Assembly: GCA_014871385.1 (NCBI GenBank)
Contig: CM026427.1
Location: forward strand, 11,346,430 to 11,410,429
Reading direction: 5' to 3'
DNA: 64,000 nt
Origin: Ceratodon purpureus
Taxonomy: Eukaryota > Streptophyta > Bryopsida > Pseudoditrichales > Ditrichaceae
In this document: positions 11,664 through 27,583 of the stretch, piece by piece
How the letters are laid out: each line of letters opens with the position of its first letter
How positions within the stretch are numbered: the stretch's first letter is position 1
Position numbers and translations under genes: made by a program
The notes under the pieces: generated by a model
Database searches by the model: none
Told to the model about the DNA's origin: nothing
Seen by the model: only the letters and a program-made list of their open reading frames with translations

Positions 11664-12070
11664 ACACTTAGTGATGAATTTTTCAATTTTATTGCATGGA
11701 TATGTAGGTAACAAACATATGCACATCTTTCGAATCGGAAGGAATATCCGGGGGGAGCGATGGTGTGGAGACGCTGCTGAAGCTCTGTGAGGGCAGCGAT
11801 GGTGGGTATGCTCTGAGATGGTGACTGCTAGGAGGTACCAAGAGTCACAAGGAGGGTGGTGCCATAACCATGTGATAGGTTTTTGTGAGAAATAGAGCAG
11901 TTCAGATCTAGATCTGGAATTGGTAGTTATGATCAAAGTGTTACAATGTGTGTTCTGCAATCTGTGCGTGCTGGTGGAACAAGGATGTGAAGTTGTGTTG
12001 GACTCATAACCCACTGTAACACGAGATCTACTCCTCTTCCCCTAAGATCTGGCATACTACTCTTTCTCTC

Positions 12071-15000
12071 TTGAAAGAACCACACCTCTGGCAACCCCTC
12101 ATCGGCAGAACCACCTCGCTGCCCTACAACAAAACACAGATGAAGAAGAAGCACTCAGTATCTCAGGGAGCCCTCTTTCACAAACTTTCATACTCTTGTT
12201 ACCTGTTTCTTTTCATATGTTTCAATGTCAATCTTCATAGGCTAGCTATTAGTCACAACACTGGAGCACATTCAGATCATAGATCGCCCCAACCACCAGC
12301 AACTAGCCTAGCAAACACATCAGCCCATACTAGATCTAGTCGTTGTTATCCTCTGAAAAACTCCTTGCTTTCACCCCCTGTTGAGTACTGTCCTGTGCAG
12401 ACACATCAGAAACAACACAAGCAATATCAATGCCGGAGACTCAAGACCAGCTCTGAAGCTCATACCCAAGACCAACTCCGAACAGCTCAAGACCAACATC
12501 AAGTAGTTCAAGATCAAGCGCGCAGCTCACGCCACAACACCGAGCATCAATGCCGAGCAGCTCAAGATCAACGACGAGCAATTCAAGACCAGCCCAGCAG
12601 TCCGCGCCACTATGCCGAACATCAATGCCGAAGCTCACACAAGTTCAACACCGAAACACAAGATCAATACGATATCCTAGATCAGCACCGAAGCGCATGC
12701 AGCAGCCAAGACGCAGAATCAACATCCCTGCAGCGCTCGAAGAGAAGAACAGAGCTCAACCTGCAACACCAAAACGAAGACATATCCCTCGACACCCAAC
12801 ATCTGGAGATCGCTCGGAACCCAGTACACCAATCCTGCTGCCTCGACACTACTCATCGGTACACGCACACCAACTGTAAGTTACTTACAAATTTTTACGC
12901 TTTTCTTGTGATCACCAAGCTCTTCTTCGAAACTGGACCTTATCACAAAACTCAGACTCTCAGCTGTCAACCGCCTGAGCATTGCTGCAACCGTTGCTCT
13001 ATCTGCGAACTCAACCTATCCAACAGCTGCAACAACAAAAACGAAGAGCTGGAGAGTGAGTACCAAGAGGACCACAAACGTAGACAACACCAACATCAGC
13101 GAACATCAACACACCGCAACTACCTCAAGAAGAAGAAATTCCTGAGCTATGTCGAACCCAACATCCTGAGGCTGCACAACACCGCCTTGAAGCAGGGAAA
13201 ACCCATCATACACAACAAGGACAAGAAGGACACGGGCAAAGCGAAGATAATGGAGCGGCATCCTCCCCTAGGCAGCACAAACAACAAGCAATTCGCAGCA
13301 GCACACAAAGCAAACCAAGAGGTGGAGAATCAGAAGGCAAGGAAGGACCTTGGCAGCAAAGCGACCCTCTCATTGCGGCGCTCCAACGGCACTGCAAGAA
13401 GTCAGGTAAGTCTCCCTAACCCCAAAGTTCAAAATCTGTTTGAAACTCCAAAATTACACTATCCACAAGAACCGTGCGATCTCCAGTGGAGGGCATCCAT
13501 TGACACTTCTAACACTATTCCTAGGTCACATAAAAACATTTACCACAGCCGCCATGAAACCTCCCAATGCCCTAAAAACCCCCCTGTGCACAGCTGCGAG
13601 TATAATAACCCTCATTCTGAAGGCTTCACTCCCTTCAACTTTCATAGAGTGTGCTCATTCGAAAGCATTGCTAGTCAGACTGTAGTTAGAAAGAGTAGCA
13701 AAGAGAGACCTTACCGCAAGGATGTGGTAGCAGTAAGCATTAGCAGAGAGCCGAGTACAATAGAGGTTGAGTCGTTTGTCCCGAAGGAAGACAGTGTGAT
13801 ATCAACAGCTTCGGAGGACCCTGTGGAGACTTGAGAGGTGGAGCGCCTGCAAGCGGCGCACCCAAACGGCACGAGGGCCGCTGACGAAGCCAGCCGCGAC
13901 CACGCGAAGACGAATGCTCCTGAGGAAGGCGAATCAGCGGCAGTCGCAGCAAGGCCGGCAACGGAGGGTGGAGAGTCGGGAGTACCGAGTCAAGGAGGGT
14001 GCGTGGAACCCTTTGCAGCCACGGCTTTTACAAAGCCAGAAGGCTTAACGGCAGATAGGAGAGCAACCTCGAAACTGGAGGCATTGGAGACTGCGAAACA
14101 CGGCACGGCGGTGAAGACAGTGGGCTCGGGAGAACCGGCAGCAACACGGGGAGCGTCACCAACAAAACAAACCACAGCGGCGAAGGCAATAGGCGTGGGA
14201 GAAACGGCAGGAGCTCGGGGAGCATTAGCAGTAAGCAAAACTGAAGAACGATCGGTGTGTGTCGTGAAGAAGACCATTTTGACAGCAGTGGCGGCATACA
14301 CCAGAGCCTCGAGCTGGCAGTCAAGCGGTACTCCGCAAGGGTACAGAGGTGCATTGACGCCAATCTCAGGTAAAATGCTCTTTGATTTTTGCATTAGAAT
14401 ACAAAATTTTAACTTACATTGCAGCTGCAATGTATGGAACTGTATGGACTCAGATTATAAGAGAAAATTGGAAACCTTGAATGCTTCCAGCCAAAGGCTG
14501 GAGCAACTCTGTGTAAGTGTAATAAAATTTAGGTCAATTGTAGGGGTCATTAGAATTAGGTTGGTAGATGACTTTTGCATTAAACCCCTATGTTTGTTTG
14601 GAAATGGATGTATGCTTGGAAATTTTTGCTTGGCTGGATATGTGTGTAGCAATGTTCATTACAGCCAGTCTGTAATTGATCATTGTAACATTCAAAACCT
14701 TCCAAAATATGATGTTGTTCCTCATTACTACAAGTTTAGGTTGTCCATGTTATTGTCTTCAAGTAATTATATGTTTTGTGCATATTGTAAGTGCAAACAC
14801 AACCAGTTTGTGTTTGTTTCCTACATAAATGCATGCACCAAAAATCAAGATTTTGATAAACTTGTGAAAAGTAGAAGATGCTCTGTGATTGTAGTAATGT
14901 ATGATTTGAAATGCATGATTCAACTAGAAATAAGATGCAATGTGATCCTCTTCCCACTTACTATCTATCAAGGAGGCCCACAACTTAATTTGTGGAATGA

Positions 15001-15079
15001 TAGAGTATGTGGGATGATAAGAGGAAAATTCTCTACAAACCGTATGAAACACTTACAAACTCTTTGTTATTGCTACAGA
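12071..15079 (+). CDS. LINE upstream reading frame (function unknown)
   Basis: One plus-strand frame is open from 12071 to the end of ORF1 at 16723, except for a single TGA at 13832-13834. The first part is rich in Gln, His and Ser, with a 75-bp in-frame duplication near 12.53-12.63 kb (units containing RHNTEHQCRAAQDQ and RHYAEHQCRSSHKF). The part after the TGA is Ala/Gly/Glu-rich. From about 14370 to 15079 the same frame runs through AT-rich DNA giving a Cys-rich protein (for example CAYCKCKH). No known domain is seen. It may be an N-terminal extension of ORF1 or a separate protein. Splice-like signals (CAG/GTAAGT near 13406, CAG/GTAAAATG at 14370, CTACAG ending 15078) leave open that some of it is spliced. 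Confidence 0.45.
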
Positions 15080-16723
15080 ATGACAAGTCAACCCAACAAC
15101 ATTTCTAGCACTAGAAAACTTTTTGAAAGTAATGTTGATAGTCTTGCTGAATTGTCATCTGGTCAAAAGCGTCCAGTCCTGGCCGTGACACTTTCTAGCC
15201 AAAAGAAGGTCAAGGGCAAAGCATCTGAGATGCAACGCCCTCCCTTTTGGTTGGGATTTCATGCACTGAACTGTTTGGCTATTGAACAAAAGGGCCCTAG
15301 AGAACCCTCTTATTCTACAAGTGAACTTGTGAGGCTTGGGATGAATCATGAAGATGCACTTGAGTATGTAGAGGCAACTCCATCATTTCCATATGTCCTC
15401 CAAGATGAGTGGCCATCTAAAAGGGCAGATGGAAAAGATGGTGGACATTTCAACCTCACCCAATTACCACGAGACGTGGAAATTGATGAGTTTGGATTTG
15501 CCTTGGATTACCAAATAGCAATCTTTTTCGATTTAGGTGAAAAAATCATCCAAAGGGATGAAGTTTTTGCCTGGACAATGGATAGGCTCAAAATGATGGA
15601 GATTGAATTGGGGGATCTTTTGGGAGAACCATTGGCAGTCATGTGCTTCCATGGATCGAAGAGGTGGAGTGGATCTTTAAAACTCCATCTCAAAAATCCC
15701 GAAAAGGACGGTTCAATACTCCCCCAAGGCATTCGACCCTTCATCCTAAAAGTGGATGATACCACCTTTTGGAGAGGGAAAGTATGCAAATCATTTGATG
15801 CTATAGCCATTGCAAGCCTCCTATCCGTCCGAGTGGCAAGCCCTAGTTTGAAGGGGAAAAAATGGTTTGAAATGCTTGAAGAGCTTGTAGTTGACAGTTT
15901 CGATAGAGGTTTCGATTTCGAGGTGACAAACATCCAAAAGAATGACTTGGCTGACTTTGCATGGATTAAAACCCCATCCCCGGAAGAGGCTAAACGTCTC
16001 AAACTTCACAAAGTTTCATTTTGGAATGAAATCATCGATGTGAAGTTTGCAAGTACGGAAAAAATCTCCGAGGATGATAAAGCAAAGAAGAATGCCGTTG
16101 TCCTCATTGCCAAAAATCTCAACAAGACCAAGTCTATTGAGATGTTGGAAGAGGGAATCAAGTCATATATGGGGGTTGGCAATGTTGTAAGCACCTTTTT
16201 CCGCCTAGAAAAAGGAAAGCATGTAGGCACTTGTAATGTGCAATGCCTAAATGCTACAGTTTACAAGAAGCATGTCAAACAAAGTGCAAAAATACTCAAT
16301 AAATGGGTAGAATTTGCACCACATCCCAAAAGTTTGGATGGAATAAGCGCACCATCTAGTGCTGAATTGGTAAGATTAGGGTTTGCAGATGTCAATACCG
16401 CCTTAGCAAATACCATTAAAGCCCTCGAAAATGGACCATCAAGTGGATATTCCAAGGCGGATCTTCACAAGATGGTAGAAGATGCGGTTTCCAAAGGCAC
16501 AACAACAACAATGGTGGAGATTCGGAAGGAGATGAGCACACTTAAGGAGGAGATAGTAACCGAAGCCAGAACATATGCAGACAAGGTACAAGCAGAATCT
16601 AACAAAAACTCAAGGTATCAAATTGAACAATTGAAAAAACAAATGATGTTTACCCTTGAAGCCCTTCAAGCAGACCATCCAAGCACCACGGAAATAGAAG
16701 GATGCATGGACTTGACAAACTAG
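15080..16723 (+). CDS. LINE ORF1 protein, RRM-like RNA-binding
   Basis: About 547 residues if the Met at 15080 (MTSQPNNISS) is used. The frame is open far upstream, so the true start is uncertain. LINE ORF1 proteins bind the element's RNA and accompany it to the nucleus. Two RNA-binding-like modules are visible: one around PFILKVDDTTFWRGKVC, and one in which NAVVLIAKNLNKTKSIEML resembles the first strand and helix of an RRM. A C-terminal helical stretch (EIRKEMSTLKEEIVTEAR) is probably a coiled coil. RRM-plus-coiled-coil is a known ORF1 type. The stop at 16723 overlaps by 22 bp the next frame, starting at ATG 16702. The domain call is from pattern only. Confidence 0.6.
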   Translation: MTSQPNNISSTRKLFESNVDSLAELSSGQKRPVLAVTLSSQKKVKGKASEMQRPPFWLGFHALNCLAIEQKGPREPSYSTSELVRLGMNHEDALEYVEATPSFPYVLQDEWPSKRADGKDGGHFNLTQLPRDVEIDEFGFALDYQIAIFFDLGEKIIQRDEVFAWTMDRLKMMEIELGDLLGEPLAVMCFHGSKRWSGSLKLHLKNPEKDGSILPQGIRPFILKVDDTTFWRGKVCKSFDAIAIASLLSVRVASPSLKGKKWFEMLEELVVDSFDRGFDFEVTNIQKNDLADFAWIKTPSPEEAKRLKLHKVSFWNEIIDVKFASTEKISEDDKAKKNAVVLIAKNLNKTKSIEMLEEGIKSYMGVGNVVSTFFRLEKGKHVGTCNVQCLNATVYKKHVKQSAKILNKWVEFAPHPKSLDGISAPSSAELVRLGFADVNTALANTIKALENGPSSGYSKADLHKMVEDAVSKGTTTTMVEIRKEMSTLKEEIVTEARTYADKVQAESNKNSRYQIEQLKKQMMFTLEALQADHPSTTEIEGCMDLTN

Positions 16724-17763
16724 TTACTTCAGATGTAGCGACGGTAAACTTATATTATATAGTATATTTATATACTAAAAATAAAAAACAAAAAACAATA
16801 AATAAAGTATCTATAGGTACTACCATTCAAAAAGAATACATATCATCTCCAATTCATCCAAAAATTAAAAATCATCCAAAATCTAAAATTCATCCAAAAT
16901 CTAAAACTCATCCAAAATCTAAAATTCATCCAAAATCTAAAATTCATCTAGAATCTAAAATTCATCCAAAAACTAAAAATCATCCAAAATCAAAAATGTA
17001 TCCAAAATCTAAGATTCATCCAAAATACAGAAATCATCCAAAATACAGAATTCATCCAAAATCTAAAAATCATCCAAAGTACAGAATTCATCCAAAATAT
17101 AAAATTCACCAAAAATACAGAATTCATCCAAAATCTAAAATTCATCCAAAATACAGAATCCATCCAAAATGCAAAATTCACCCAAAATCCATAAACCACC
17201 CAATCTTCAAAGATCATTCAAAATCCAAAATTCATCCAAAATTCAAAATGTATTCAAAAGACAATATTTATCCAAAACCTAAAACTCATCAAAACCCCAA
17301 ATTTTATCAAAAGAACATATCACAGCCTCAATTTAAAATCCAACCTAAAATACATACAAACCATATGCCCCTAGAAATCAAAAGTCTTCCTAAACTGAGA
17401 ATACACTCAATACCTAAAACTCACATTATATTAGACACTATACAAAAACAAAATCTCTTAAACAAACACTCGACAACCATGGCCTATCAACACCTCAAAC
17501 AAATAGAATACACCCATCTACACTACGGGAAACTAAAGAATAAAAGAAACAAAAACCACCACATATACAATTGGTTTGCTAACTCAATTACAAACCATTC
17601 AACCGAAGTCATTAAAACCTCACATTACCCACCCTCACGTTTAGAACAAAAAATACCTGCATTACCTAATCTATTTAACACAACAAATTTTATAACAACA
17701 AAATATTATAAATTAAATTATAAAACCCCAAATCTTGTAACTACGAAGGATACTACTTTGTAA
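16702..17763 (+). CDS. LINE hexapeptide-repeat frame leading into ORF2
   Basis: A 353-codon frame starting at an ATG inside the last codons of ORF1 (22-bp overlap, different frame). After a short lead, about 24 tandem hexapeptides of the type HPKSKI/HPKYRI fill roughly residues 52-200, followed by a basic Lys/His/Asn-rich tail. No catalytic domain is seen. The basic repeat could bind nucleic acid (inference). The frame ends at 17763 while the 2A motif and APE lie in another frame that opens at 17724, so about 40 bp of overlap separates the two. Either a frame change broke ORF2 here, or the two are separate frames by design. Confidence 0.5.
   Translation: MHGLDKLVTSDVATVNLYYIVYLYTKNKKQKTINKVSIGTTIQKEYISSPIHPKIKNHPKSKIHPKSKTHPKSKIHPKSKIHLESKIHPKTKNHPKSKMYPKSKIHPKYRNHPKYRIHPKSKNHPKYRIHPKYKIHQKYRIHPKSKIHPKYRIHPKCKIHPKSINHPIFKDHSKSKIHPKFKMYSKDNIYPKPKTHQNPKFYQKNISQPQFKIQPKIHTNHMPLEIKSLPKLRIHSIPKTHIILDTIQKQNLLNKHSTTMAYQHLKQIEYTHLHYGKLKNKRNKNHHIYNWFANSITNHSTEVIKTSHYPPSRLEQKIPALPNLFNTTNFITTKYYKLNYKTPNLVTTKDTTL
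16855..17307 (+). repeat. 18-bp minisatellite (CATCCAAAATCTAAAATT-type)
   Basis: About 24 tandem copies of an 18-bp unit CATCCAAAATCTAAAATT and variants, always in whole units, so the encoded period is six residues (HPKSKI). Variants such as HPKYRI and HPKSKN are interspersed rather than blocked. The array lies inside the LINE, between ORF1 and the 2A-APE frame. Later units are more degenerate (IYPKPK, HQNPKF). Confidence 0.9.
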
Positions 17764-19145
17764 ATAAACTAGCCCTACTTCAATGCGGGGACATTGAGTC
17801 AAACCCAGGACCAATGCCCAACATACTTAGAACTCATCCAGCCGACCACAAGAAAAGAGCTAGAAGATACTTTATCCCTAGCACAATTAAATTGCGCCCG
17901 GAATACCAACATATTGCAAATTCATTTGCTCCAATTTTAATAACTAACCACCATCTACACCAACAAGCAATTATGGAATTTCCACACCTACATCGATATA
18001 TACAAACACAAATACAATCTCCACTACCTCACATACTATATGCATTAATCGTTACCATACACCCACTAATAAATACATGTAATAATATATTAGCTCAGCC
18101 CCGCATTCACCACTTCAATGATATATGGACCAATACAGTATTGATCAGACTAGCCAACCTAAATAACCCCCCGGAAAGACACATCCTCACTCAACACCCT
18201 TATGCCAAATTTATTGAATTGAACCATGACCTAATATCTCCAAAAAACTCAATTCACGACGAACTTTACAAATTTATCCATAACCAAGATACACTACCAA
18301 CACCTATCATACTCCAAAGAAAATTTCCCTTCTTACCAAATAAACTAATCACTGAAGCTTTAAGCTGTTTCGAAAGTCTAAATGAATACTCACATCCACC
18401 ACCCCTTCCAAACATCCCAACACCTCCGCCAAGAACAAACATCAACACTAATGACAAAACAAATATAATAACATGGAATGCATCTTCGCTTAATACAGCT
18501 CTACCAAACCTACAAAACCTCGTATACAATTCCTCAAGGAATACGGCAATTATAAATATCCAAGAAACAAAACTCACAGCAACCAAATCCACTAAATGGA
18601 TACAAAATTTATTTCCTGAGTATAAACTTATCTTTAATAACACACATGCCCTCACAAGATGCATGCAACAAAGAATGCCCTACACCCCCGGAAGAGGAGG
18701 CCTACTTACACTTATACACAATAAATATGCTTTCCCTGGAAATATTACCAAAATCCCTACACCAGCAAACATTTCCCCATATCTACAAATAATAAAAATA
18801 AACAACCATCCGTTATTACCATGGTTAATCATACACTTATACATGCCGACACATCTAGAAGACATACGCCTCATCCCCCACATTCAAACTACAATCACAA
18901 GCCAAATAAATGCACACCCTAATCATACATACATCTTGTGTGGAGACTTCAATCGTGATATAACACTAAACGGAAGACAAAATCACAACATCAACACCCC
19001 ACCACAAGAAGAAGATATTCAATGGAAAAACTTTACAAATTCACTAAATCTAGAATACATCCCAACAAACACAACATTCACAAGACAAGGTGGTTACAAC
19101 TACACATCAACTAGTCTCATAGATGGCTTCTACATAAAACCCTAG
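17724..19145 (+). CDS. LINE ORF2 part 1: AP-type endonuclease
   Basis: After the 2A motif comes about 440 residues. The first half has no recognised domain. The second half is an exonuclease-endonuclease-phosphatase fold of the APE type: NIITWNASSL (first strand with Asn), INIQETKL (catalytic Glu), RGGLLTLI, YILCGDFNRD (GDFN motif) and ending SLIDGFYIKP. The last element of the fold, SDHYPV (the SDH motif), follows in a different frame at about 19190. The APE domain is therefore split by one frame change near 19142, which would inactivate ORF2 of this copy. This enzyme nicks target DNA to prime reverse transcription. Confidence 0.85.
   Translation, partial: NPKSCNYEGYYFVNKLALLQCGDIESNPGPMPNILRTHPADHKKRARRYFIPSTIKLRPEYQHIANSFAPILITNHHLHQQAIMEFPHLHRYIQTQIQSPLPHILYALIVTIHPLINTCNNILAQPRIHHFNDIWTNTVLIRLANLNNPPERHILTQHPYAKFIELNHDLISPKNSIHDELYKFIHNQDTLPTPIILQRKFPFLPNKLITEALSCFESLNEYSHPPPLPNIPTPPPRTNINTNDKTNIITWNASSLNTALPNLQNLVYNSSRNTAIINIQETKLTATKSTKWIQNLFPEYKLIFNNTHALTRCMQQRMPYTPGRGGLLTLIHNKYAFPGNITKIPTPANISPYLQIIKINNHPLLPWLIIHLYMPTHLEDIRLIPHIQTTITSQINAHPNHTYILCGDFNRDITLNGRQNHNINTPPQEEDIQWKNFTNSLNLEYIPTNTTFTRQGGYNYTSTSLIDGFYIKP
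17763..17813 (+). other. 2A ribosome-skipping peptide motif (…GDIESNPGP)
   Basis: In the frame of the APE domain the codons read NKLALLQCGDIESNPGP and are followed directly by an ATG at 17814. This fits the 2A consensus D-(V/I)-E-x-N-P-G-P with an upstream Leu-rich helix. In 2A peptides the ribosome fails to join the last Gly-Pro and releases the upstream protein. Such motifs are known in picornavirus-like viruses and in some non-LTR retrotransposons (trypanosome L1Tc, sea-urchin elements). Here it would separate an N-terminal product from the APE-RT polyprotein. The frame is open upstream only to 17724. Confidence 0.85.
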
Positions 19146-22100
19146 ATAATACTAGACTTACCTCCACGACAAACACAAATTTGAATCTAAACTCAGATCA
19201 TTATCCAGTCACCTTACACATTCCACAAAACCTATTGATAGCCAGACCACCGACTCCCATCAATACCCCAACAATTAGAATCTTAAATCCAATACCTCCA
19301 GAAAACTTAGAAAAATTTAATATTGAATTTTTTGAAAAAAATTCTATACAAATAAATGAATTAACCAGACTTCTAGAAAATAATGACCATCTTACCACCG
19401 CTTTATGGCAAGAAGCTTGCGCATCCTTAGACAAAATCGTAGAAAAAATCTCAGAAACCATTGAAAAAACATGTAACGCACCCCCACTACCACAACTCAC
19501 AAATAGAACAAGACAACAAGGCGGCTTTTTACCTCGAAAACTAGCCAGAGAATGGAAAAAACACCTTACCACATACCATCTTATTAGAAAAACTATATAT
19601 ATTGCAAAAAACAACCCCCAATGGCAAACACACCCCATATTGAACGAAATACGTAGCCACCAATACGTTCAAATCCCACATCCACCAGCAACAAACTCTA
19701 TACCAAACGAATGGATCGATGACATAGCTAAAATCGCAAAAACTGCTAACAAAGAAGCCAGAAAAATAACCACAAAATACACTAAAGACTGCATCCACAA
19801 AGCTGTATCAAAATATCGACAACTGTATGAAAAAAGCCCCAAAAAAGTAAATCGAAAAGTCTTCAAAAACTCTGAAACTTCACCTCTTGACTCTATAATG
19901 GATAGACAAAACAACATCTTAACTAGTCCGGAAGATATTGCTCAAGAAATTTACATCCAACAGTCCATTAGCAACCGGCCAACAGTCCCCACATGTCACT
20001 ATCAAACTGCACACCCTCCACAATGCACATGTAGCGTCAGACAATATCCATGGCATGACTTGGACGGATTCACAATTGATCAATGCGGAGAACCACAAAT
20101 CCCCCTACACACATATTTTGATCAAGAAACTTACGATTTATGCCTCAAAAACCTAGGAAATAACAAAGCCCCAGGCCCAGACAAAATCCCTAACTCTATT
20201 CTGAAAAATATGCCCCCACGATTCCACAAACTACTATTTCTATTTTTTAAACACTGCTACAAACAAAAACAAATACCTGCAACATGGAAAACCAGCCTAA
20301 CTGTCTTATTATATAAAAAAGGTGAACCATCCCAACTTACAAACCATAGACCTATCGCTTTAGCAAACACCATATACAAACTCTTTACTAGCACATTAAC
20401 CTTTATCCTCTCCACATACGGTGAAAGACATCAAATTCTGCATGACAGCCAAGAAGGATTCCGAGCAGAAAGAGGAACATCGAGACAACTTCAACTACTT
20501 ATTGCAGCCTTAGAAGATGCAAGATTTACAAATCAAGATATATATATTCTCTACATTGACTTCAAAAATGCTTTTGGATCCATTGACCATGCGAGACTCT
20601 TGGCCATAATGAAAGATCTCGGATACCCAACTGATGCTATAAACTTGGTAGGAAATATATACTCACAATCCTCTACTATATTTTCTGGAGAACATTTTGG
20701 TAAAACTCTACCTATTCCCATACAAAGAGGAACAATACAAGGGGATACTCTTAGTCCATATCTATTTTTAATATTCTTAGAGCCACTTCTTAGATGGTTA
20801 CAACAAGGTGACAATGGATATACCTTTGGTACATCCAAAGTTACAATCTCATCCGCAGCATATGCTGATGATTTAGCAGCTATTGCTAACAAATTAGCAT
20901 CACTACAAATACAGCTAAATAAATTAGACAAATTCTGCGAATGGGCTGGAATGGATCTTGGTATACCTAAATGTGCAGTGACCGGATGCCCAAATAAATC
21001 AAAAATGAACCCCACAGCATTCAAAGCACAGATCCAAGCCACCAATATAAACTACAGAAACCAACCAATACCAGTTTTAGACCAACATGACCCTTATACA
21101 TACCTTGGAATAAACCTAGCATCATCACTTAAATGGAAAACACAAATAAACACCACCACAGCTAAAGTCATCAAACAATGTCAAGCCTTAGTGGCTTGCC
21201 CAGCCACTATGAAACAAAAAATCAACATGGCCGATACAGTCATACATGCCGGGATCGCATACAGCTTCTACGCAGTACCATACTCTATACCAGCCATTAG
21301 AAAACTTGACAAAAAGATCATAGCACTCCACAAAACAATATGTGGACTACCAAAAAGTACATCTAATATAGCTACACAACTCCCACACGATCTATTCGGA
21401 ATGGAAGCCTTTTCGTTAAAAAATGCCTATCTACGATGTATTGGAGAACAATTACAAAATGCTCTCAATGACAAAGGCAGACTCGGTAAAATCTACTTTG
21501 GCTTACTACAATTCATACTTGCAAAATTTGGAGGCTCCGAAGAAATAGAGCGCATCAAATATCAAGATTGTGTGAGATCCCCTATCACTAGAACATTGTT
21601 TTTACTCAAACATGAAGCCGGAGTCCACCTTAAAAGCACTATAGGAAACTTTCTATTAAATCCATCCCCACTCGAAACCGCATGGATGCAAGAAGCACAA
21701 CACCTACATGGACTAAATCCCAAAACTTCTCTCAAACTACTACAAAAACTACTAGTACATAATATAATAAATTTAGAACAAATAACCATGCCTAACGGGA
21801 CCACCCTAATGAACCCAGAAGAATATAAAATATACCACTCCAACCCCACAAAACTCATAAAAAGTGCGCTAAATATTGCCAGTCAATTATTTTGTAAACC
21901 CACTTGCCATCAAAGATGCCAAATACCATGTAGATTCCGATACCACTCCCCCCCAAGAACCCTAAAAAGTGATTACATAGTATTAAACCACAACATTCTA
22001 CCACGACAATTGCACCCCCCAATACACCCCCCCAACCCTCTTATTCCAGAACTTCCTCCTCCTCCCAACAATATGCTTAAATATCCAAGACAATTCCCCA

Positions 22101-23143
22101 TACACACAATATTAAACCACAAACAAAATAAAATAAAAGACCCAAATGGGATAAACTATAAAGATACAACATATTTATGCCAATGGACCACGCCAAATAA
22201 TAATACATACAACAAATGGCGTAGCCAAAGAGAACTTTTCCCGTGGAGCGACATTAACACCTTCCTCCACAATACTGAATTACTTACACAATACTACACT
22301 AAACAACAACATAAACATTTTTCAAACATCATCGAAAAGTACTTCTCCATAGAACAACAAAAAGATACAAGATACATTACTCCGGCCACAATTATCCCAT
22401 TGGCACATATCTCCATTAATGAATGCAACCCAGAAAATGACATCGAAACAGAATCGAACATTATTCAAACACAACATGACGTTGCACACATATACGAAGA
22501 TAATGGCCGACACCTCATCACCATTCCGAAAACTAGACTACTATGGCTATGGAAACAATATCAACATGCAAAAAACACTCCACATAGCCTTGAGCCATCC
22601 ACCCAATCATTTGAAACTGAAATTGTGTGGCTATATCAAAGATATAAATACCGTATCCCAAAAAATGATCCACTTAAATGTGCTCAATACACAATACCAA
22701 CTGAAATACTAGATTTTCTAATATCAACATTCAACATCCACCAATCCTACTTTTCATCACCAATTACATGCCCTACACAATTTACACAATTTTACTCACC
22801 ATTCTCACGGGATATAATATTCGGCTCCCTAGGGAAAGCATTTGATCACAAATGGAAAGGAATTGGCTACGCTCACCCCCACAATGAAACCGACATACAA
22901 CAAGCCATTCATTGGGCCCGCCTTGCGGCAAAAAATAACCCAAACAACATCACCATACTCATCTCTCCCGATTCTAACTGGTACCAAAACTCCAACCCCC
23001 ACACTGGTCCATTCCCGGACACACATATTATTGCCCATTTTGCTGCAGACACCATTACATATGACGAGCCAACAATTCCCCCCGAGCTTAAACTAGAAAG
23101 AAAAGAACTTTCTACGCTCCGAATATTATGTATCCATCACTAA
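19142..23143 (+). CDS. LINE ORF2 part 2: reverse transcriptase and unassigned domain
   Basis: The frame opens with the end of the APE fold (LNSDHYPVTLHIP). The reverse transcriptase follows: KAPGPDKIPNSIL, NHRPIALANTIYKL, DSQEGFRAERGTS, ILYIDFKNAFGSIDH, PIQRGTIQGDTLSPYLFLIF and the catalytic AAYADDLAAIA (YADD at 20861-20872). The order and spacing are those of non-LTR reverse transcriptases, and all catalytic Asp residues are present. A long connection region follows. Near 22.75-23.1 kb is a compact block (SRDIIFGSLGKAF, KWKGIGYAHPHN, ISPDSNWYQN) that I cannot assign firmly. The frame ends at TAA 23141-23143 and the same frame reopens at once with RNase H, so this stop is probably a nonsense change in one long ORF2. 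Confidence 0.9.
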   Translation, partial: LDNTRLTSTTNTNLNLNSDHYPVTLHIPQNLLIARPPTPINTPTIRILNPIPPENLEKFNIEFFEKNSIQINELTRLLENNDHLTTALWQEACASLDKIVEKISETIEKTCNAPPLPQLTNRTRQQGGFLPRKLAREWKKHLTTYHLIRKTIYIAKNNPQWQTHPILNEIRSHQYVQIPHPPATNSIPNEWIDDIAKIAKTANKEARKITTKYTKDCIHKAVSKYRQLYEKSPKKVNRKVFKNSETSPLDSIMDRQNNILTSPEDIAQEIYIQQSISNRPTVPTCHYQTAHPPQCTCSVRQYPWHDLDGFTIDQCGEPQIPLHTYFDQETYDLCLKNLGNNKAPGPDKIPNSILKNMPPRFHKLLFLFFKHCYKQKQIPATWKTSLTVLLYKKGEPSQLTNHRPIALANTIYKLFTSTLTFILSTYGERHQILHDSQEGFRAERGTSRQLQLLIAALEDARFTNQDIYILYIDFKNAFGSIDHARLLAIMKDLGYPTDAINLVGNIYSQSSTIFSGEHFGKTLPIPIQRGTIQGDTLSPYLFLIFLEPLLRWLQQGDNGYTFGTSKVTISSAAYADDLAAIANKLASLQIQLNKLDKFCEWAGMDLGIPKCAVTGCPNKSKMNPTAFKAQIQATNINYRNQPIPVLDQHDPYTYLGINLASSLKWKTQINTTTAKVIKQCQALVACPATMKQKINMADTVIHAGIAYSFYAVPYSIPAIRKLDKKIIALHKTICGLPKSTSNIATQLPHDLFGMEAFSLKNAYLRCIGEQLQNALNDKGRLGKIYFGLLQFILAKFGGSEEIERIKYQDCVRSPITRTLFLLKHEAGVHLKSTIGNFLLNPSPLETAWMQEAQHLHGLNPKTSLKLLQKLLVHNIINLEQITMPNGTTLMNPEEYKIYHSNPTKLIKSALNIASQLFCKPTCHQRCQIPCRFRYHSPPRTLKSDYIVLNHNILPRQLHPPIHPPNPLIPELPPPPNNMLKYPRQFPIHTILNHKQNKIKDPNGINYKDTTYLCQWTTPNNNTYNKWRSQRELFPWSDINTFLHNTELLTQYYTKQQHKHFSNIIEKYFSIEQQKDTRYITPATIIPLAHISINECNPENDIETESNIIQTQHDVAHIYEDNGRHLITIPKTRLLWLWKQYQHAKNTPHSLEPSTQSFETEIVWLYQRYKYRIPKNDPLKCAQYTIPTEILDFLISTFNIHQSYFSSPITCPTQFTQFYSPFSRDIIFGSLGKAFDHKWKGIGYAHPHNETDIQQAIHWARLAAKNNPNNITILISPDSNWYQNSNPHTGPFPDTHIIAHFAADTITYDEPTIPPELKLERKELSTLRILCIHH

Positions 23144-24844
23144 AACAACAGTATCGGTACGCACGAGCAAATGAATCAACTTGCTCAGACAATTAACAAT
23201 CTCCAAATATTACAAACTCACACACAAATTGCATCCCCGACCCCCTTAAACACTCATGTCAATCCCAGTAAAAAATGGTCCAAATCATATTATCCAAACA
23301 CCCCTGCAAATAACTCAACACCTATCCCACAAATACCAAATTACCAAACAAATCTACCACTAAAATTCCACCCCCAATTCAGTTATTACACAGATGGATC
23401 ATTCAAACCCCCAAAGGAAATGGACAACGGTAAATGGAGAAGAGAAAAAGCCGGATACGGTATTTACAGCCCCAAAGGCCTCAATATCCCCAAAAGACTC
23501 CATGGACACCAAAATATACTCCGTGCCGAAATGATGGCAGTACACAAAACACTTAGAATTATTAACACACAATTCCCCAACGAACCAGCATACATATTTA
23601 CCGACTGTCTAAATGTACTATACCTACTTAATACACAAATAAAACACCCCACACTACATAATAGTCACCCCAACCAAACCACACTTGCCTCCATAGTAGA
23701 ACTACTCCAACAAAGAACACAACCAATTTCACTATACAAAGTTAGAGCACACATCAACATTGACGGTAACGAAGAGGCAGATTATTTAGCAAAGCAAGGT
23801 CTAAAACTAGCACACAGAAAAGCCCTACACTCGTACGAACATGCCCATGCCACTCCGTTCTACTTCCAAAAAGATAACTGGCCTTCAAAAAACGATGTTC
23901 CAGACAAAGGACCAGTTAGAACTCTAGAAAATCAAATCAAAAAATATGACAGAGAAAACAATCTAGAAAACATGCCCATACAAACCCCCAACATTTGCAA
24001 ATGGACGGAAAATGTAGACATAGACAATGTACTTTCTAACGAATTTTGGGAAAATCCAGCCATTACTGACAAGCAAAAATCATGCCTCATAAAATTCCGT
24101 ACGGGAACTTACATGGGCCAAGCTAGAAAACAAATGTTCTTCGGAAGAGAAAGATTTCCATCCATCACATGTCCAATTTGCAATTCACGCGAACCGGATA
24201 CATGGCTACATGTATTACTCACATGCCAACAACAACATATACACTCCCTCCGAGTCAAAAGACACAACAAAGCAGTATGGGAAATTAGAAAACTACTAGT
24301 CTCATCCGAAAAATCTCGTTGTTTTATTCTAATGAATGCGGGCACCTTCAATGATAAATCCCCAGAAAATACCGTTCCCAACTGGTTACTTCCATGCACA
24401 TGTGGCACTCAAAGATGTCATTGTAACTCTAGATTTAGACCAGACATTCTTTGCGTTAAAGGTTTGCCGTACCAAAGCGACCCCCCTACAGAAATAAACC
24501 CCAATCTTACCATACAATTCATTGAATTCACATACTGCAATGACAGATTCTCACCAGAAACATTTTTAGCTAAAGCCAACAAATACAACCCACTAATTGC
24601 CAGTCTTACCGCTAGAGGATGGAAAGTCGACCCCCTCATTGTCATCACAGCAGGCGCTAGAGCTACCACACACATTCCTTCAATGAAACTACTTGCAGAC
24701 AATTTCAAAATACCATGGCTTACCATCAAAAACACCTTTAAAAACATAAACACTATTGCCATACAATATGCCATGTCTATACTTCTCCACAAAAGAAGAA
24801 TAGAAAACCACCAACCATTACCCGAAACATTAGACCCCCCATAG
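23144..24844 (+). CDS. LINE ORF2 part 3: RNase H, CCHC finger and restriction-like endonuclease
   Basis: In frame with part 2. RNase H shows its acidic residues in YYTDGS, LRAEMMAV, IFTDCLN and GNEEADYLAKQG. A zinc finger CPICNSREPDTWLHVLLTC (CCHC) follows. Then comes RPDILCVKG (RPD at 24437-24445), a spacer of 26 residues, FIEFTYCNDRF (Glu at 24524) and KANKY (24572-24586). The last set matches the R2-type restriction-like endonuclease, in which R2Bm has KPD…VDVQVVSG…KRNKY at the same relative positions. The catalytic-type residues (PD, E, K, KY) are all present. A C-terminal helical tail follows. Together with the APE domain this gives two different endonucleases in one element. Confidence 0.85.
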   Translation, partial: NNSIGTHEQMNQLAQTINNLQILQTHTQIASPTPLNTHVNPSKKWSKSYYPNTPANNSTPIPQIPNYQTNLPLKFHPQFSYYTDGSFKPPKEMDNGKWRREKAGYGIYSPKGLNIPKRLHGHQNILRAEMMAVHKTLRIINTQFPNEPAYIFTDCLNVLYLLNTQIKHPTLHNSHPNQTTLASIVELLQQRTQPISLYKVRAHINIDGNEEADYLAKQGLKLAHRKALHSYEHAHATPFYFQKDNWPSKNDVPDKGPVRTLENQIKKYDRENNLENMPIQTPNICKWTENVDIDNVLSNEFWENPAITDKQKSCLIKFRTGTYMGQARKQMFFGRERFPSITCPICNSREPDTWLHVLLTCQQQHIHSLRVKRHNKAVWEIRKLLVSSEKSRCFILMNAGTFNDKSPENTVPNWLLPCTCGTQRCHCNSRFRPDILCVKGLPYQSDPPTEINPNLTIQFIEFTYCNDRFSPETFLAKANKYNPLIASLTARGWKVDPLIVITAGARATTHIPSMKLLADNFKIPWLTIKNTFKNINTIAIQYAMSILLHKRRIENHQPLPETLDPP

Positions 24845-24894
24845 TCAAAGAAAACCCCTAAATATAATCAAAAAAATTTTAGTAGCTAAAGCTA

Positions 24895-25135
24895 CTTTAT
24901 TTGAATTGATAGCATACGGGTGTCAAGTCTCTTGTCAACTTCTCACAGAGGGGGCTGTTGGTTGGCACAACTCTCTACTGCCTGCAATTGCTCACTCAGC
25001 AGTACCAAGCCACTTCATCCCCCACATCCACTCAAACGAGTCCATCAGGGTTCGAACCCGGACCAGATTAATGAGACAAACGCTCACCTCCAACCAACAA
25101 ATGAGCTCGTGGCTTGATGTCCAAAACTGAAATCA
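24895..25135 (-). mobile_element. tRNA-derived SINE-like sequence
   Basis: Read on the minus strand, a tRNA-like head runs from about 25125: GAGCTCATTTGTTGGTTGG resembles a tRNA A-box region (AGCTCA…TTGG), and about 25 bases later GGGTTCGAACCC (25048-25059) is a good B box. A tRNA-unrelated body follows down to about 24900. This layout fits a Pol III-transcribed plant SINE. It abuts the 3' end of the LINE, so the hairpin at about 24880-24895 (AGTAGCTTTAGCTACT on the minus strand) could belong to either. No target-site duplication was found. No full cloverleaf can be folded by eye, so it is not called a tRNA gene. Confidence 0.55.
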
Positions 25136-25159
25136 AATGAATCTTGAGTTGATAATCAC

Positions 25160-25212
25160 TACTATTACTGGCTACTTGTTACTAGTTACTGGTTACTGGT
25201 TACTTTGTGACT
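25160..25212 (+). repeat. Short GTTACT/GGTTACT tandem repeats
   Basis: Irregular repetition of TTACTGG/GTTACT units (TTACTAGTTACTGGTTACTGGTTACT). It is a local simple repeat between the SINE and the fold-back element. Confidence 0.6.
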
Positions 25213-25253
25213 AAAGTGTCTACTCTCGAAAGGGGGGGAGTAGATCTTTACTT

Positions 25254-25836
25254 CCATACCTTTGTCCTGTGGGCATTGGCTTGGGGGTGGATCGAACAGA
25301 CACTTAATTCACTTCGGTCTCCTCCGGAGACCGTAGTTTCTCTCTCTCTGCACATCTTTCATATGTAAAAACAAATCCTATTAAGTAACAAAAATATAAA
25401 CTCTCTATAAGGGCTAAATTGAGGTGTCATTTGACCAAGCTTTGAGAAATAAATATCCTTATATTTTGAATTAGATTTTGGCAAAGAAATTGTACCACCA
25501 TGCTCAAATGTCCTAAATTAGTTACCGCATTGATGACAAATAGAAAAATCTGATTATAATAAAGAAATATCTATTTTTACAACATTTAGACATTGTCATC
25601 CTAATTCTTAAAACTCTATAGAAGGAATTGTCAAACTTTTTTGAAGAAACTTGCCTTGGTAAAGTTGTGCATATGGATGATCTCTACATACATAAACAAT
25701 CAAATTTAAAAAATTGAACACTGATTGCTTGCAATTAAAGAGAGAGAGAGAAACATCGGTCCCCGAAGGGGACCGACGTGAATGAAGTGTCTGTTCGATC
25801 CACCCCCAATCCAATGCCCACAGGACAAAGGTATGG
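25254..25836. mobile_element. 583-bp fold-back (long TIR) element with internal hairpins
   Basis: The left arm (25254 to about 25349) starts CCATACCTTTGTCCTGTGGG. The right arm (about 25738-25836) is its inverse and ends …CACAGGACAAAGGTATGG. Each arm of about 100 bp also contains its own small perfect hairpin: CGGTCTCC-TCC-GGAGACCG at 25315-25333 and CGGTCCCC-GAA-GGGGACCG at 25757-25775. The two arms end in CT and AG microsatellites facing an AT-rich centre. No coding capacity and no clear target-site duplication (only TT on both sides). The superfamily is unknown. Confidence 0.7.
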
Positions 25837-27583
25837 TTGCAATTAAATATCTTGTAAAACCATGAAAATTGACTAAAAAATTGGATAATGGAGGGACTCT
25901 TGGAGGGATTTATGGAGGGGAGGGAGTTGAGTGACCTACCCCAAAATCTTTAAAATCGGGTTTGTTACACATTGCCCAAGTCTATTCCTTTGGTACAAAT
26001 CACAAGGTATTGATTAAATTTGAACCATTCTTCTAGTTTTCTTCCCAGGCTATCCTTGATTAAATTTTTTAGTTTAACTCATTTTTCAAGGTACCCCTTT
26101 GTAGAACCGTGAGGCTTTGGACTTCAAAGTATATTTAAAGTTGATTGTATTACAATCCAAATTTTGAATTCCAAATTTTGATTGTGAGAGTTTTTTATTT
26201 TTTATTTTTTATTTTTATTTTGAAAGTCAAATCTTTACTTATACTTATTTTAAAATAATTTGTGTCTACATGAACTTAAGATAATTCTAAATAGAAGGTG
26301 TGTTATATTTTTAAAAACATCTTTTCTAGTTTTTGTTGATTGGGTATAGTATATAAAGACATATGAGTTGTTGAAATTATATTATCTCACTTATCTTCTC
26401 TTATATTTCTGAGTTGGTCACTTATGATATATTTTCTCCCCCTTATGAATATATTTTACATATATACTTCAAAGGTTTGATAACATATATTTCTATCAAT
26501 ATGTTTGAAGACTTAAACATATTTGAAGATTGATATATTTTTTATCAATATATATTATCATCATATAATTGTACTTATAAATATTTTATGAAAATATATT
26601 TTATAAATTCATTTTTGGATCTTCAATTTTCATTTTTTGATCTTTAATTTTTATTTTTGGATTAAAAAAAATCATGGTTAAATTTTGGTCTATGTACCTC
26701 ATATCTATGTATGATCTTTGACTTTCCATTTATGATTTTCAATCTTCCATTTATGATTTTTAATCCTCTATTTATGATTTTTGATCTTCCATTTATAATT
26801 TTCAAACATTCAATTATTTTGAAGTGCTTCAAATATTTTGCTCAAAACTTTGGAATTTTTATTACTGAAGTGACAGTTTAACTATGCTTTTGGTAATTCG
26901 TCATGACCAAATCCCTTATTTGCAATTATTTAAACCCTGACCACCATGACATTTGTGATTAAAAATAATCTTTAACTCAAAAGATAACCCTCCAATCATA
27001 ATGAACTACAAAGATGCTGCTTTGGAGGGGAGGGAAGATGAACCGCAAGGCCCTCATATATTCAAGGAAGCTGGCTTTAGAGGGTGTGGCGCCCTGAGTT
27101 TATGCGTTGGCGGGGTCCATTTATGGCCGGGTGGGAACTACCCCTGGGATTTGAGGTTGGCAGGGCAAAAAGAGCTTGCGGTGCAGATGCTCTAACTATT
27201 TGTACGAGGAAGAGACCAACAAGAGTCACCCAAGGCAATAACTCCAGTGCTTCCTCAAGACTCTGGAGAGAACTTAACGACGGTGTAGAACATCCTCACA
27301 GAAATTGTAGCATTTAAAAGGTAACATGAACTTACAACTCTCTGCAATGCCATTGTCTTCTCTTCGACCAGACCTCATGACTCGTGACCACTAAAGCTCA
27401 TCCTAAAGAATCTGCATGTTTCAGCACAATTCTAACACTAAAACTACCTGGCATAACAGATACATAATACATACTCTGAAGGCAAAGAAATCAAAGAATG
27501 CTATCCATCCACGGTGCTTGATTCTACCTCAGGGAACAGAAGAAGAATGAATGGGTGGGAAGAGACACAAGGACGGATCAAAA
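25837..27583. repeat. AT-rich intergenic DNA with a 21-22 bp tandem repeat near 26720-26812
   Basis: No gene is recognised. At about 26720-26812 a unit like CCATTTATGATTTTCAATCTT is repeated about four times with small changes. Around 26190-26220 is a (TTTTTA)n tract. The plus-strand frames at 27001-27317 carry no known motif. The last ~250 bp are the likely 3' UTR of the minus-strand TGD4 gene. Confidence 0.5.

What the first reader, a model, noticed from the sequence alone, without database searches (positions are those of the whole stretch)
17724..24844. A LINE with two endonucleases (APE and R2-type REL) in a land-plant genome
Seen: an APE fold (GDFN, then SDHYPV), an RT with YADD, an RNase H, a CCHC finger, then RPD…IEFTYCNDRF…KANKY, which lines up with R2Bm KPD…VDVQVVSG…KRNKY. 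Known: elements with both endonucleases define Dualen/RandI, described in Chlamydomonas, and were proposed to preserve an early stage of LINE evolution. A copy in an embryophyte-like genome with nearly all domains readable would extend that clade and give material to test which endonuclease is used.
Basis: partly seen in the sequence, partly recalled or inferred. Interest (0 to 1): 0.88.

Follow-up and report, generated by a model that had tools for sequence, protein, structure and literature searches.

The report
Two-nuclease retrotransposon in a land plant
A land-plant genome, most likely a moss, carries many copies of a very large retrotransposon whose enzyme has two different DNA-cutting domains, both conserved by natural selection, plus a viral-type 2A peptide and an altered RNA-cap methyltransferase-like domain, so it can be asked in a plant why such an element keeps two nucleases.

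The parts
11721..11731 (+). 5' target-site duplication GCACATCTTTC
   Evidence: identical to 25350-25360, at the two ends of homology among copies
11732..25349 (+). whole element, full length, 13.6 kb; sequence shared with copy L039+L021 begins at 11756
   Evidence: blastn with own-genome copies; TSD
11732..15079 (+). 5' region ahead of the ORF1 Met, presumed untranslated (3.3 kb)
   Evidence: in copy X21 against X30 the blocks ahead of the Met have dN/dS about 0.4-0.9 where computable, far above the 0-0.06 of the ORF1 body; the start codon is inferred
15080..16723 (+). ORF1, 547 aa from the presumed Met, no Pfam match
   Evidence: X21 against X30, codons 640-1139 (Met is codon 594): 96-100% aa identity, dN 0-0.021, dS 0.11-0.38; 0 Pfam families
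16702..17763 (+). start of ORF2: ATG at 16702 overlaps the ORF1 stop; leader in frame 1, with a 1-nt deletion near 17721 relative to L020
   Evidence: ORF lists, ATG position, comparison with copy L020; leader and 2A in one frame in 9 of 12 long-frame sibling copies
16851..17294 (+). 18-nt tandem array, 24.7 copies, KIHPKS-type repeats in the leader
17748..17813 (+). 2A (StopGo) peptide GYYFVNKLALLQCGDIESNPGP; expected release point before the last P
   Evidence: sequence; in a frame over 250 aa in 17 of 19 fetched copies; same place in P0005
18462..19142 (+). APE-type endonuclease
   Evidence: PF03372 E=1.7e-5; dN/dS 0.048 between subfamilies
19135..19135 (+). 1-nt deletion relative to copy L020: frame change in this copy
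20144..21115 (+). reverse transcriptase
   Evidence: PF00078 E=6.6e-27; tree; dN/dS 0.026
22490..23140 (+). PCIF1-like methyltransferase-fold domain; HPHN where PCIF1 has NPPF
23141..23143 (+). TAA nonsense codon of this copy
   Evidence: open in relatives P0001 and P0002 and in the 12 long-frame sibling copies
23387..23794 (+). RNase H
   Evidence: PF00075 E=2.6e-13; own profile
24170..24226 (+). CCHC zinc finger CPICN-H-C
   Evidence: four invariant columns in 16 sequences
24074..24841 (+). finger plus restriction-like endonuclease; PD at 24440-24445
24881..24896 (+). 3' UTR hairpin AGTAGC-TAAA-GCTACT
   Evidence: stem perfect in 18 of 19 fetched copies, one mismatch in L037; z only -1.0 for the 116-nt stretch alone
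25337..25349 (+). 3' tail TTTCTCTCTCTCT
   Evidence: CT-type pyrimidine tail in 19 of 19 fetched copies
25350..25360 (+). 3' target-site duplication GCACATCTTTC

Best explanation
It is a Dualen/RandI-type non-LTR retrotransposon of a land plant, one decayed copy of a family that moved recently. Proposed mechanism: a bicistronic RNA makes ORF1 (547 aa, presumably an RNA-binding partner; inferred) and ORF2, whose ATG overlaps the ORF1 stop (shown; reinitiation inferred). In ORF2 the ribosome skips a peptide bond at the 2A (motif and conservation shown, activity inferred), releasing a repeat-rich leader and an enzyme of about 2340 aa. The enzyme carries APE, RT, PCIF1-like domain, RNase H, CCHC finger and REL (shown). 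It inserts by target-primed reverse transcription starting at the hairpin and CT-rich 3' end, giving 10-12-bp duplications (duplications shown in two copies, priming inferred). Because both nucleases keep their active-site-type motifs and are under similarly strong selection, the likeliest use is a division of labour: one opens the first strand and the other the second (inferred; which does which is unknown). The PCIF1-like domain, lacking the NPPF motif, most likely binds rather than methylates RNA, perhaps the capped 5' end of its own transcript (inferred).
For: Domains by Pfam; REL by profile and fold; PCIF1-like by profile and fold; all five domains in 22 of 22 clade members extending far enough both ways; RT clade 100/98; 77 scored copies, 12 with frames of 2373-2896 aa; dN/dS 0.026-0.151 in ten of ten segments; full length with TSD; 2A in 17 of 19 fetched copies, changing inside GDIExNPGP only at the free x and once I to M; land-plant host genes.
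Against: No activity was tested. dS between subfamilies is 0.8-1.5, near saturation for the method, so the ratios are approximate. A domain can be conserved for binding rather than cleavage. The window copy itself is broken. No sequence labelled Dualen by its source was available. The 2A motif is seen in only 9 of 41 relatives with at least 200 aa ahead of the APE, five of them from one species. Codon-position entropy gives no support for selection on the leader repeats.
Confidence: 0.85

Rival explanations
1. Only the APE cuts DNA; the REL fold is kept for target or RNA binding.
For: Matches dispersed over 12 contigs, unlike a site-specific R2.
Against: The PD, E and K motif patterns of REL are found in 12 of 12 long-frame copies; PD is invariant and E at least 90% in 16 diverse sequences; dN/dS 0.055.
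Confidence: 0.15
2. Only the REL cuts; the APE is a relic.
For: RT nearest to R2 among solved structures.
Against: APE motif patterns found in 12 of 12 copies except one pattern unmatched in L038; dN/dS 0.048.
Confidence: 0.05
3. The PCIF1-like domain is an active methyltransferase with an altered motif, methylating the element's RNA cap.
For: Whole fold kept, matching SAH- and cap-bound PCIF1; of 71 rows 19 read NPEY, two HPPF, one SPPF and one NPPS, the SPPF row being close to a standard amino-methyltransferase motif (the last point recalled).
Against: The position varies widely: 41 different tetrapeptides and one gap in 71 rows, none NPPF; HPHN in this family.
Confidence: 0.2
4. The 2A motif is a coincidence without function.
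For: Seen in only 9 of 41 relatives with at least 200 aa ahead of the APE, five of them Haematococcus.
Against: Kept in 17 of 19 fetched copies of two subfamilies about 20% apart in ORF2 DNA, changing mainly at the free position; present in P0005 at the same place.
Confidence: 0.1
5. Algal contamination or a mis-assembled contig rather than a plant element.
For: The named relatives by RT are mainly chlorophytes.
Against: 77 matches on 12 contigs (C1-C12), and plant genes on both sides within the window.
Confidence: 0.02

Closest known systems
Dualen/RandI clade (Chlamydomonas and other green algae)
   Same: APE and REL in one element (PMC3636483 and PMC4640811, passages seen), RNase H (PMC4640811, passage); RT clade with Haematococcus and Pleodorina proteins
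   Different: Land-plant host; CT-type 3' tail instead of the (ATT)n or (CTATTT)n given for green-algal RandI in PMC3747384 (passages seen); whether the founding elements carry a 2A or the PCIF1-like domain could not be read
R2 non-LTR retrotransposons
   Different: R2 lacks APE, RNase H and PCIF1-like domain and targets rDNA (recalled); this family is dispersed
PCIF1/CAPAM cap m6Am methyltransferase
   Different: NPPF catalytic motif absent; embedded in a retrotransposon polyprotein
2A-bearing APE-type LINEs (Odon 2013, title seen in a reference list only)
   Same: 2A of DxExNPGP type
   Different: By its title APE-type elements of multicellular organisms; the paper itself was not held

Membership tests
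Dualen/RandI | N-terminal APE endonuclease | tested here: met
   PF03372 E=1.7e-5, dN/dS 0.048
Dualen/RandI | C-terminal REL with CCHC finger | tested here: met
Dualen/RandI | RNase H | tested here: met
   PF00075 E=2.6e-13
Dualen/RandI | RT grouping with named Dualen/RandI sequences | tested here: inconclusive
   97-row clade 100/98 of dual-endonuclease proteins with Haematococcus and Pleodorina rows, but no row is labelled Dualen or RandI by its source
Dualen/RandI | RT position between REL-type and APE-type groups | tested here: inconclusive
   R2 rows in the tree but no L1 or I rows; R2 104 bits against 62 for 8c8j
R2 | REL only, no APE | tested here: not met
   APE present
PCIF1 methyltransferases | NPPF catalytic motif | tested here: not met
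   HPHN in the window and in 12 of 12 long-frame copies
2A/StopGo peptides | D(V/I)ExNPGP consensus | tested here: met
   GDIESNPGP
2A/StopGo peptides | splits the nascent chain | not testable with these tools
   needs a translation assay

The most novel reading that the evidence does not exclude
A recently mobile land-plant LINE that needs both an APE and an REL for one insertion cycle, is released from its leader by a natural plant 2A, and uses a captured, catalytically dead cap-methyltransferase fold to read the 5' cap of its own RNA, a module kept across the clade from green algae to a moss.
Probability: 0.25. Interest if true: 0.93.

Novelty: new variant of a known kind. Interest (0 to 1): 0.8.

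Why it matters
Dual-endonuclease LINEs have been taken as evidence that APE elements arose by replacing REL (PMC4640811, passage), and it is open which nuclease they use. Here both are under similarly strong constraint in a family with many long-frame copies in a land plant, so the question becomes testable. The PCIF1-like domain without its motif, in 58 of 58 clade proteins long enough to include it, is undescribed in LINEs as far as I could search and suggests a new role for a cap-enzyme fold. The 2A would be a natural StopGo in a plant genome, whereas PMC12846837 (abstract and passages) found no evidence of natural use by plant viruses.

Tried and rejected
Single-sequence searches of the C-terminus gave no REL match in PDB or Pfam; the 16-sequence profile did. 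The first TSD search failed because I placed the 5' end at about 16.7 kb; the copies later put it at 11732. I first took ORF 13835-16723 for a foreign gene because of its base composition; the copies show that its last 547 codons are ORF1. Programmed frameshifting at 17.7 kb and 19.1 kb was considered and dropped: long-frame siblings read through there in one frame, and the window has 1-nt deletions relative to L020 at both places. Codon-position entropy of the 18-nt array shows no third-position excess, so selection on the repeats is unsupported, although the frame after the array is open beyond chance (about 1e-4 in a Markov-1 simulation). No target-site consensus could be drawn: only two copies had both flanks. 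One viral-contig scan gave no relative. tRNA and Rfam scans of the window gave nothing. A genome-wide 2A pattern search and a PF12237 search of the host genome were asked and never answered. Literature searches showed no land-plant Dualen, no PCIF1-like domain in a LINE and no natural plant 2A, but several listed only the top of long rankings (15 of 3014, 40 of 95, 15 of 656, 12 of 974), so this is weak evidence of absence. The founding Dualen paper and two others were not held.

Full report
Observation. Stop-to-stop frames 17724-19145, 19115-23143 and 23144-24844 contain, in order, a 2A motif, APE, RT, a PCIF1-like domain, RNase H, a CCHC finger and the RPD...IEFTYCNDRF...KANKY stretch.

Clade. 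In an IQ-TREE of 113 RT rows (109 of the 120 proteins with stretches of at least 290 aa, the window and three R2 stretches) the window lies in a 97-row clade with support 100/98, sister to P0003 (100/100) and near P0004, P0006 and P0007 (98/83). Haematococcus lacustris and Pleodorina starrii proteins are inside; R2 and other REL-only rows are outside. Two long-branched rows with APE, RNase H and REL but no PCIF1-like domain (P0112, P0117) lie just outside; the tool warns that long branches meet there. No L1 or I row was included. Among solved structures the RT scores 104 bits with R2 and 62 with 8c8j, labelled only RNA-directed DNA polymerase and recalled by me as L1.

Host. The window carries a WRKY domain and a kinase whose closest matches are unnamed (93%) and whose named relatives are headed by land plants (Marchantia 64% over 68% of the query, angiosperms about 50%), with a Chlamydomonas protein at 34%. 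The genome holding the window has 362.5 Mb in 151 contigs, one of 110.5 Mb. PMC8000587 (passages seen) gives Ceratodon purpureus U and V chromosomes over 100 Mb each and about 30% of a 360-Mb genome, so this moss is the likely host.

Copies. A search of that genome with the 566-aa C-terminal piece scored 77 matches (1620 first-look candidates, so a lower bound): 54 at 89-100% identity (subfamily A, window included) and 23 at 82-84% (subfamily B). Twelve of the 77 have open frames of 2373-2896 aa. I fetched 19 copies, including all twelve. In 17 of 19 the 2A lies in a frame over 250 aa (not in L024 and L029); the residues that vary inside GDIExNPGP are the free x (S, T, P) and once I to M, with a few more changes just before it. 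In 9 of the 12 long-frame copies a leader of 367-546 codons precedes the 2A in the same frame; in L023, L037 and L038 it is shorter. The ORF2 ATG (16702 in the window) overlaps the ORF1 stop.

Extent. Copy L039+L021 matches the window from 11756 to 25343, and other copies to 25349. The window has GCACATCTTTC at 11721-11731 and 25350-25360, and L021 has GAGCACGCAG at both its ends: two of two copies with both flanks in hand show a duplication. The 24 nt (window) and 21 nt (L021) between the duplication and the shared 5' start differ between the two copies and are unexplained. All 19 fetched copies end in a CT-type pyrimidine tail. The 3' hairpin stem is perfect in 18 of 19, with one mismatch in L037.

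Selection. Between three A and nine B long-frame copies (27 pairs, NG86, after the 2A) dN/dS is: N-region 0.121, APE 0.048, APE-RT linker 0.077, RT 0.026, post-RT 0.104, PCIF1-like 0.082, linker 0.144, RNase H 0.080, linker 0.151, CCHC+REL 0.055; dS is 0.8-1.5, so the ratios are approximate and the 27 pairs are not independent. The motif patterns tried were found in the 12 copies except for two patterns (APE, RNase H) unmatched in L038. In ORF1, X21 against X30, the 500 codons 640-1139 have dN at most 0.021 against dS 0.11-0.38; the block holding the presumed Met (codon 594, window 15080) has 0.095 and 0.195; the blocks ahead have dN/dS about 0.4-0.9 where computable. Nucleotide identity after the 2A is 96.8-98.1% within the three A copies, 93.5-98.7% within B and 80.6% between, which points to recent movement.

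State of the window copy. It is 99.0% identical to L020 over 9885 nt, with 1-nt deletions near 17721 and 19135 relative to it and a TAA at 23141, so it is not expected to be functional. Several sibling copies are broken too.

Mechanism. Shown: anatomy, duplications, constraint. Inferred: reinitiation at ORF2, StopGo at the 2A (an N-terminal 2A-like sequence of sea urchin works in plant cells: PMC4981915, passages seen), target-primed reverse transcription, division of labour between nucleases, and cap reading by the PCIF1-like domain.

Novelty. The passages I saw of PMC3747384 list RandI families, among plants, under green algae only. The searches named in Tried and rejected showed no land-plant report, with the stated limits. 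The founding Dualen paper was not held, so whether its elements already show the PCIF1-like region or a 2A is unknown to me.

Noticed in passing
window 25741-25852 (- strand): A second copy of the element's last ~110 nt in inverted orientation (87.5% identical), either a 5'-truncated copy or a SINE sharing the tail, as listed for RandI and SINEs in Chlamydomonas (PMC3747384).
   Followed up: partly
own-genome copies L020-L038, ORF1 part: ORF1 does not track ORF2: against the window ORF1 is 97-99% in L020 and L021, about 71% in L022, L026 and L027 (A-type ORF2), about 91% in L030 and L031 (B-type ORF2) and about 65% in L032-L038, so modules appear to have been exchanged.
   Followed up: partly
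own genome C6 (110.5 Mb), rows: C6 holds 24 of 77 copies, near its share of the genome, but 14 of the 23 A copies at 89-93%; a giant, possibly non-recombining chromosome may be keeping old insertions.
   Followed up: no
window 25048-25061: The element's 3' UTR contains GGGTTCGAACCCGG, like a tRNA T-arm or pol III B box; ARAGORN finds no tRNA.
   Followed up: no
proteins P0004, P0016, P0020, P0029 and others: Relatives add further host-like domains: OTU (PF02338), Josephin (PF02099) and PHD fingers (PF00628).
   Followed up: no
proteins P0112 and P0117: Distant dual-endonuclease proteins with APE, RNase H and REL but no PCIF1-like domain, just outside the main clade.
   Followed up: no
L020, L025, L026 near 5300 nt before the ORF2 stop: Three copies change frame at about the same place; hot spot for indels, assembly error or something programmed.
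   Followed up: no
window 16851-17294: 18-nt array with 78% matches and no indels; the leader length varies among copies.
   Followed up: partly
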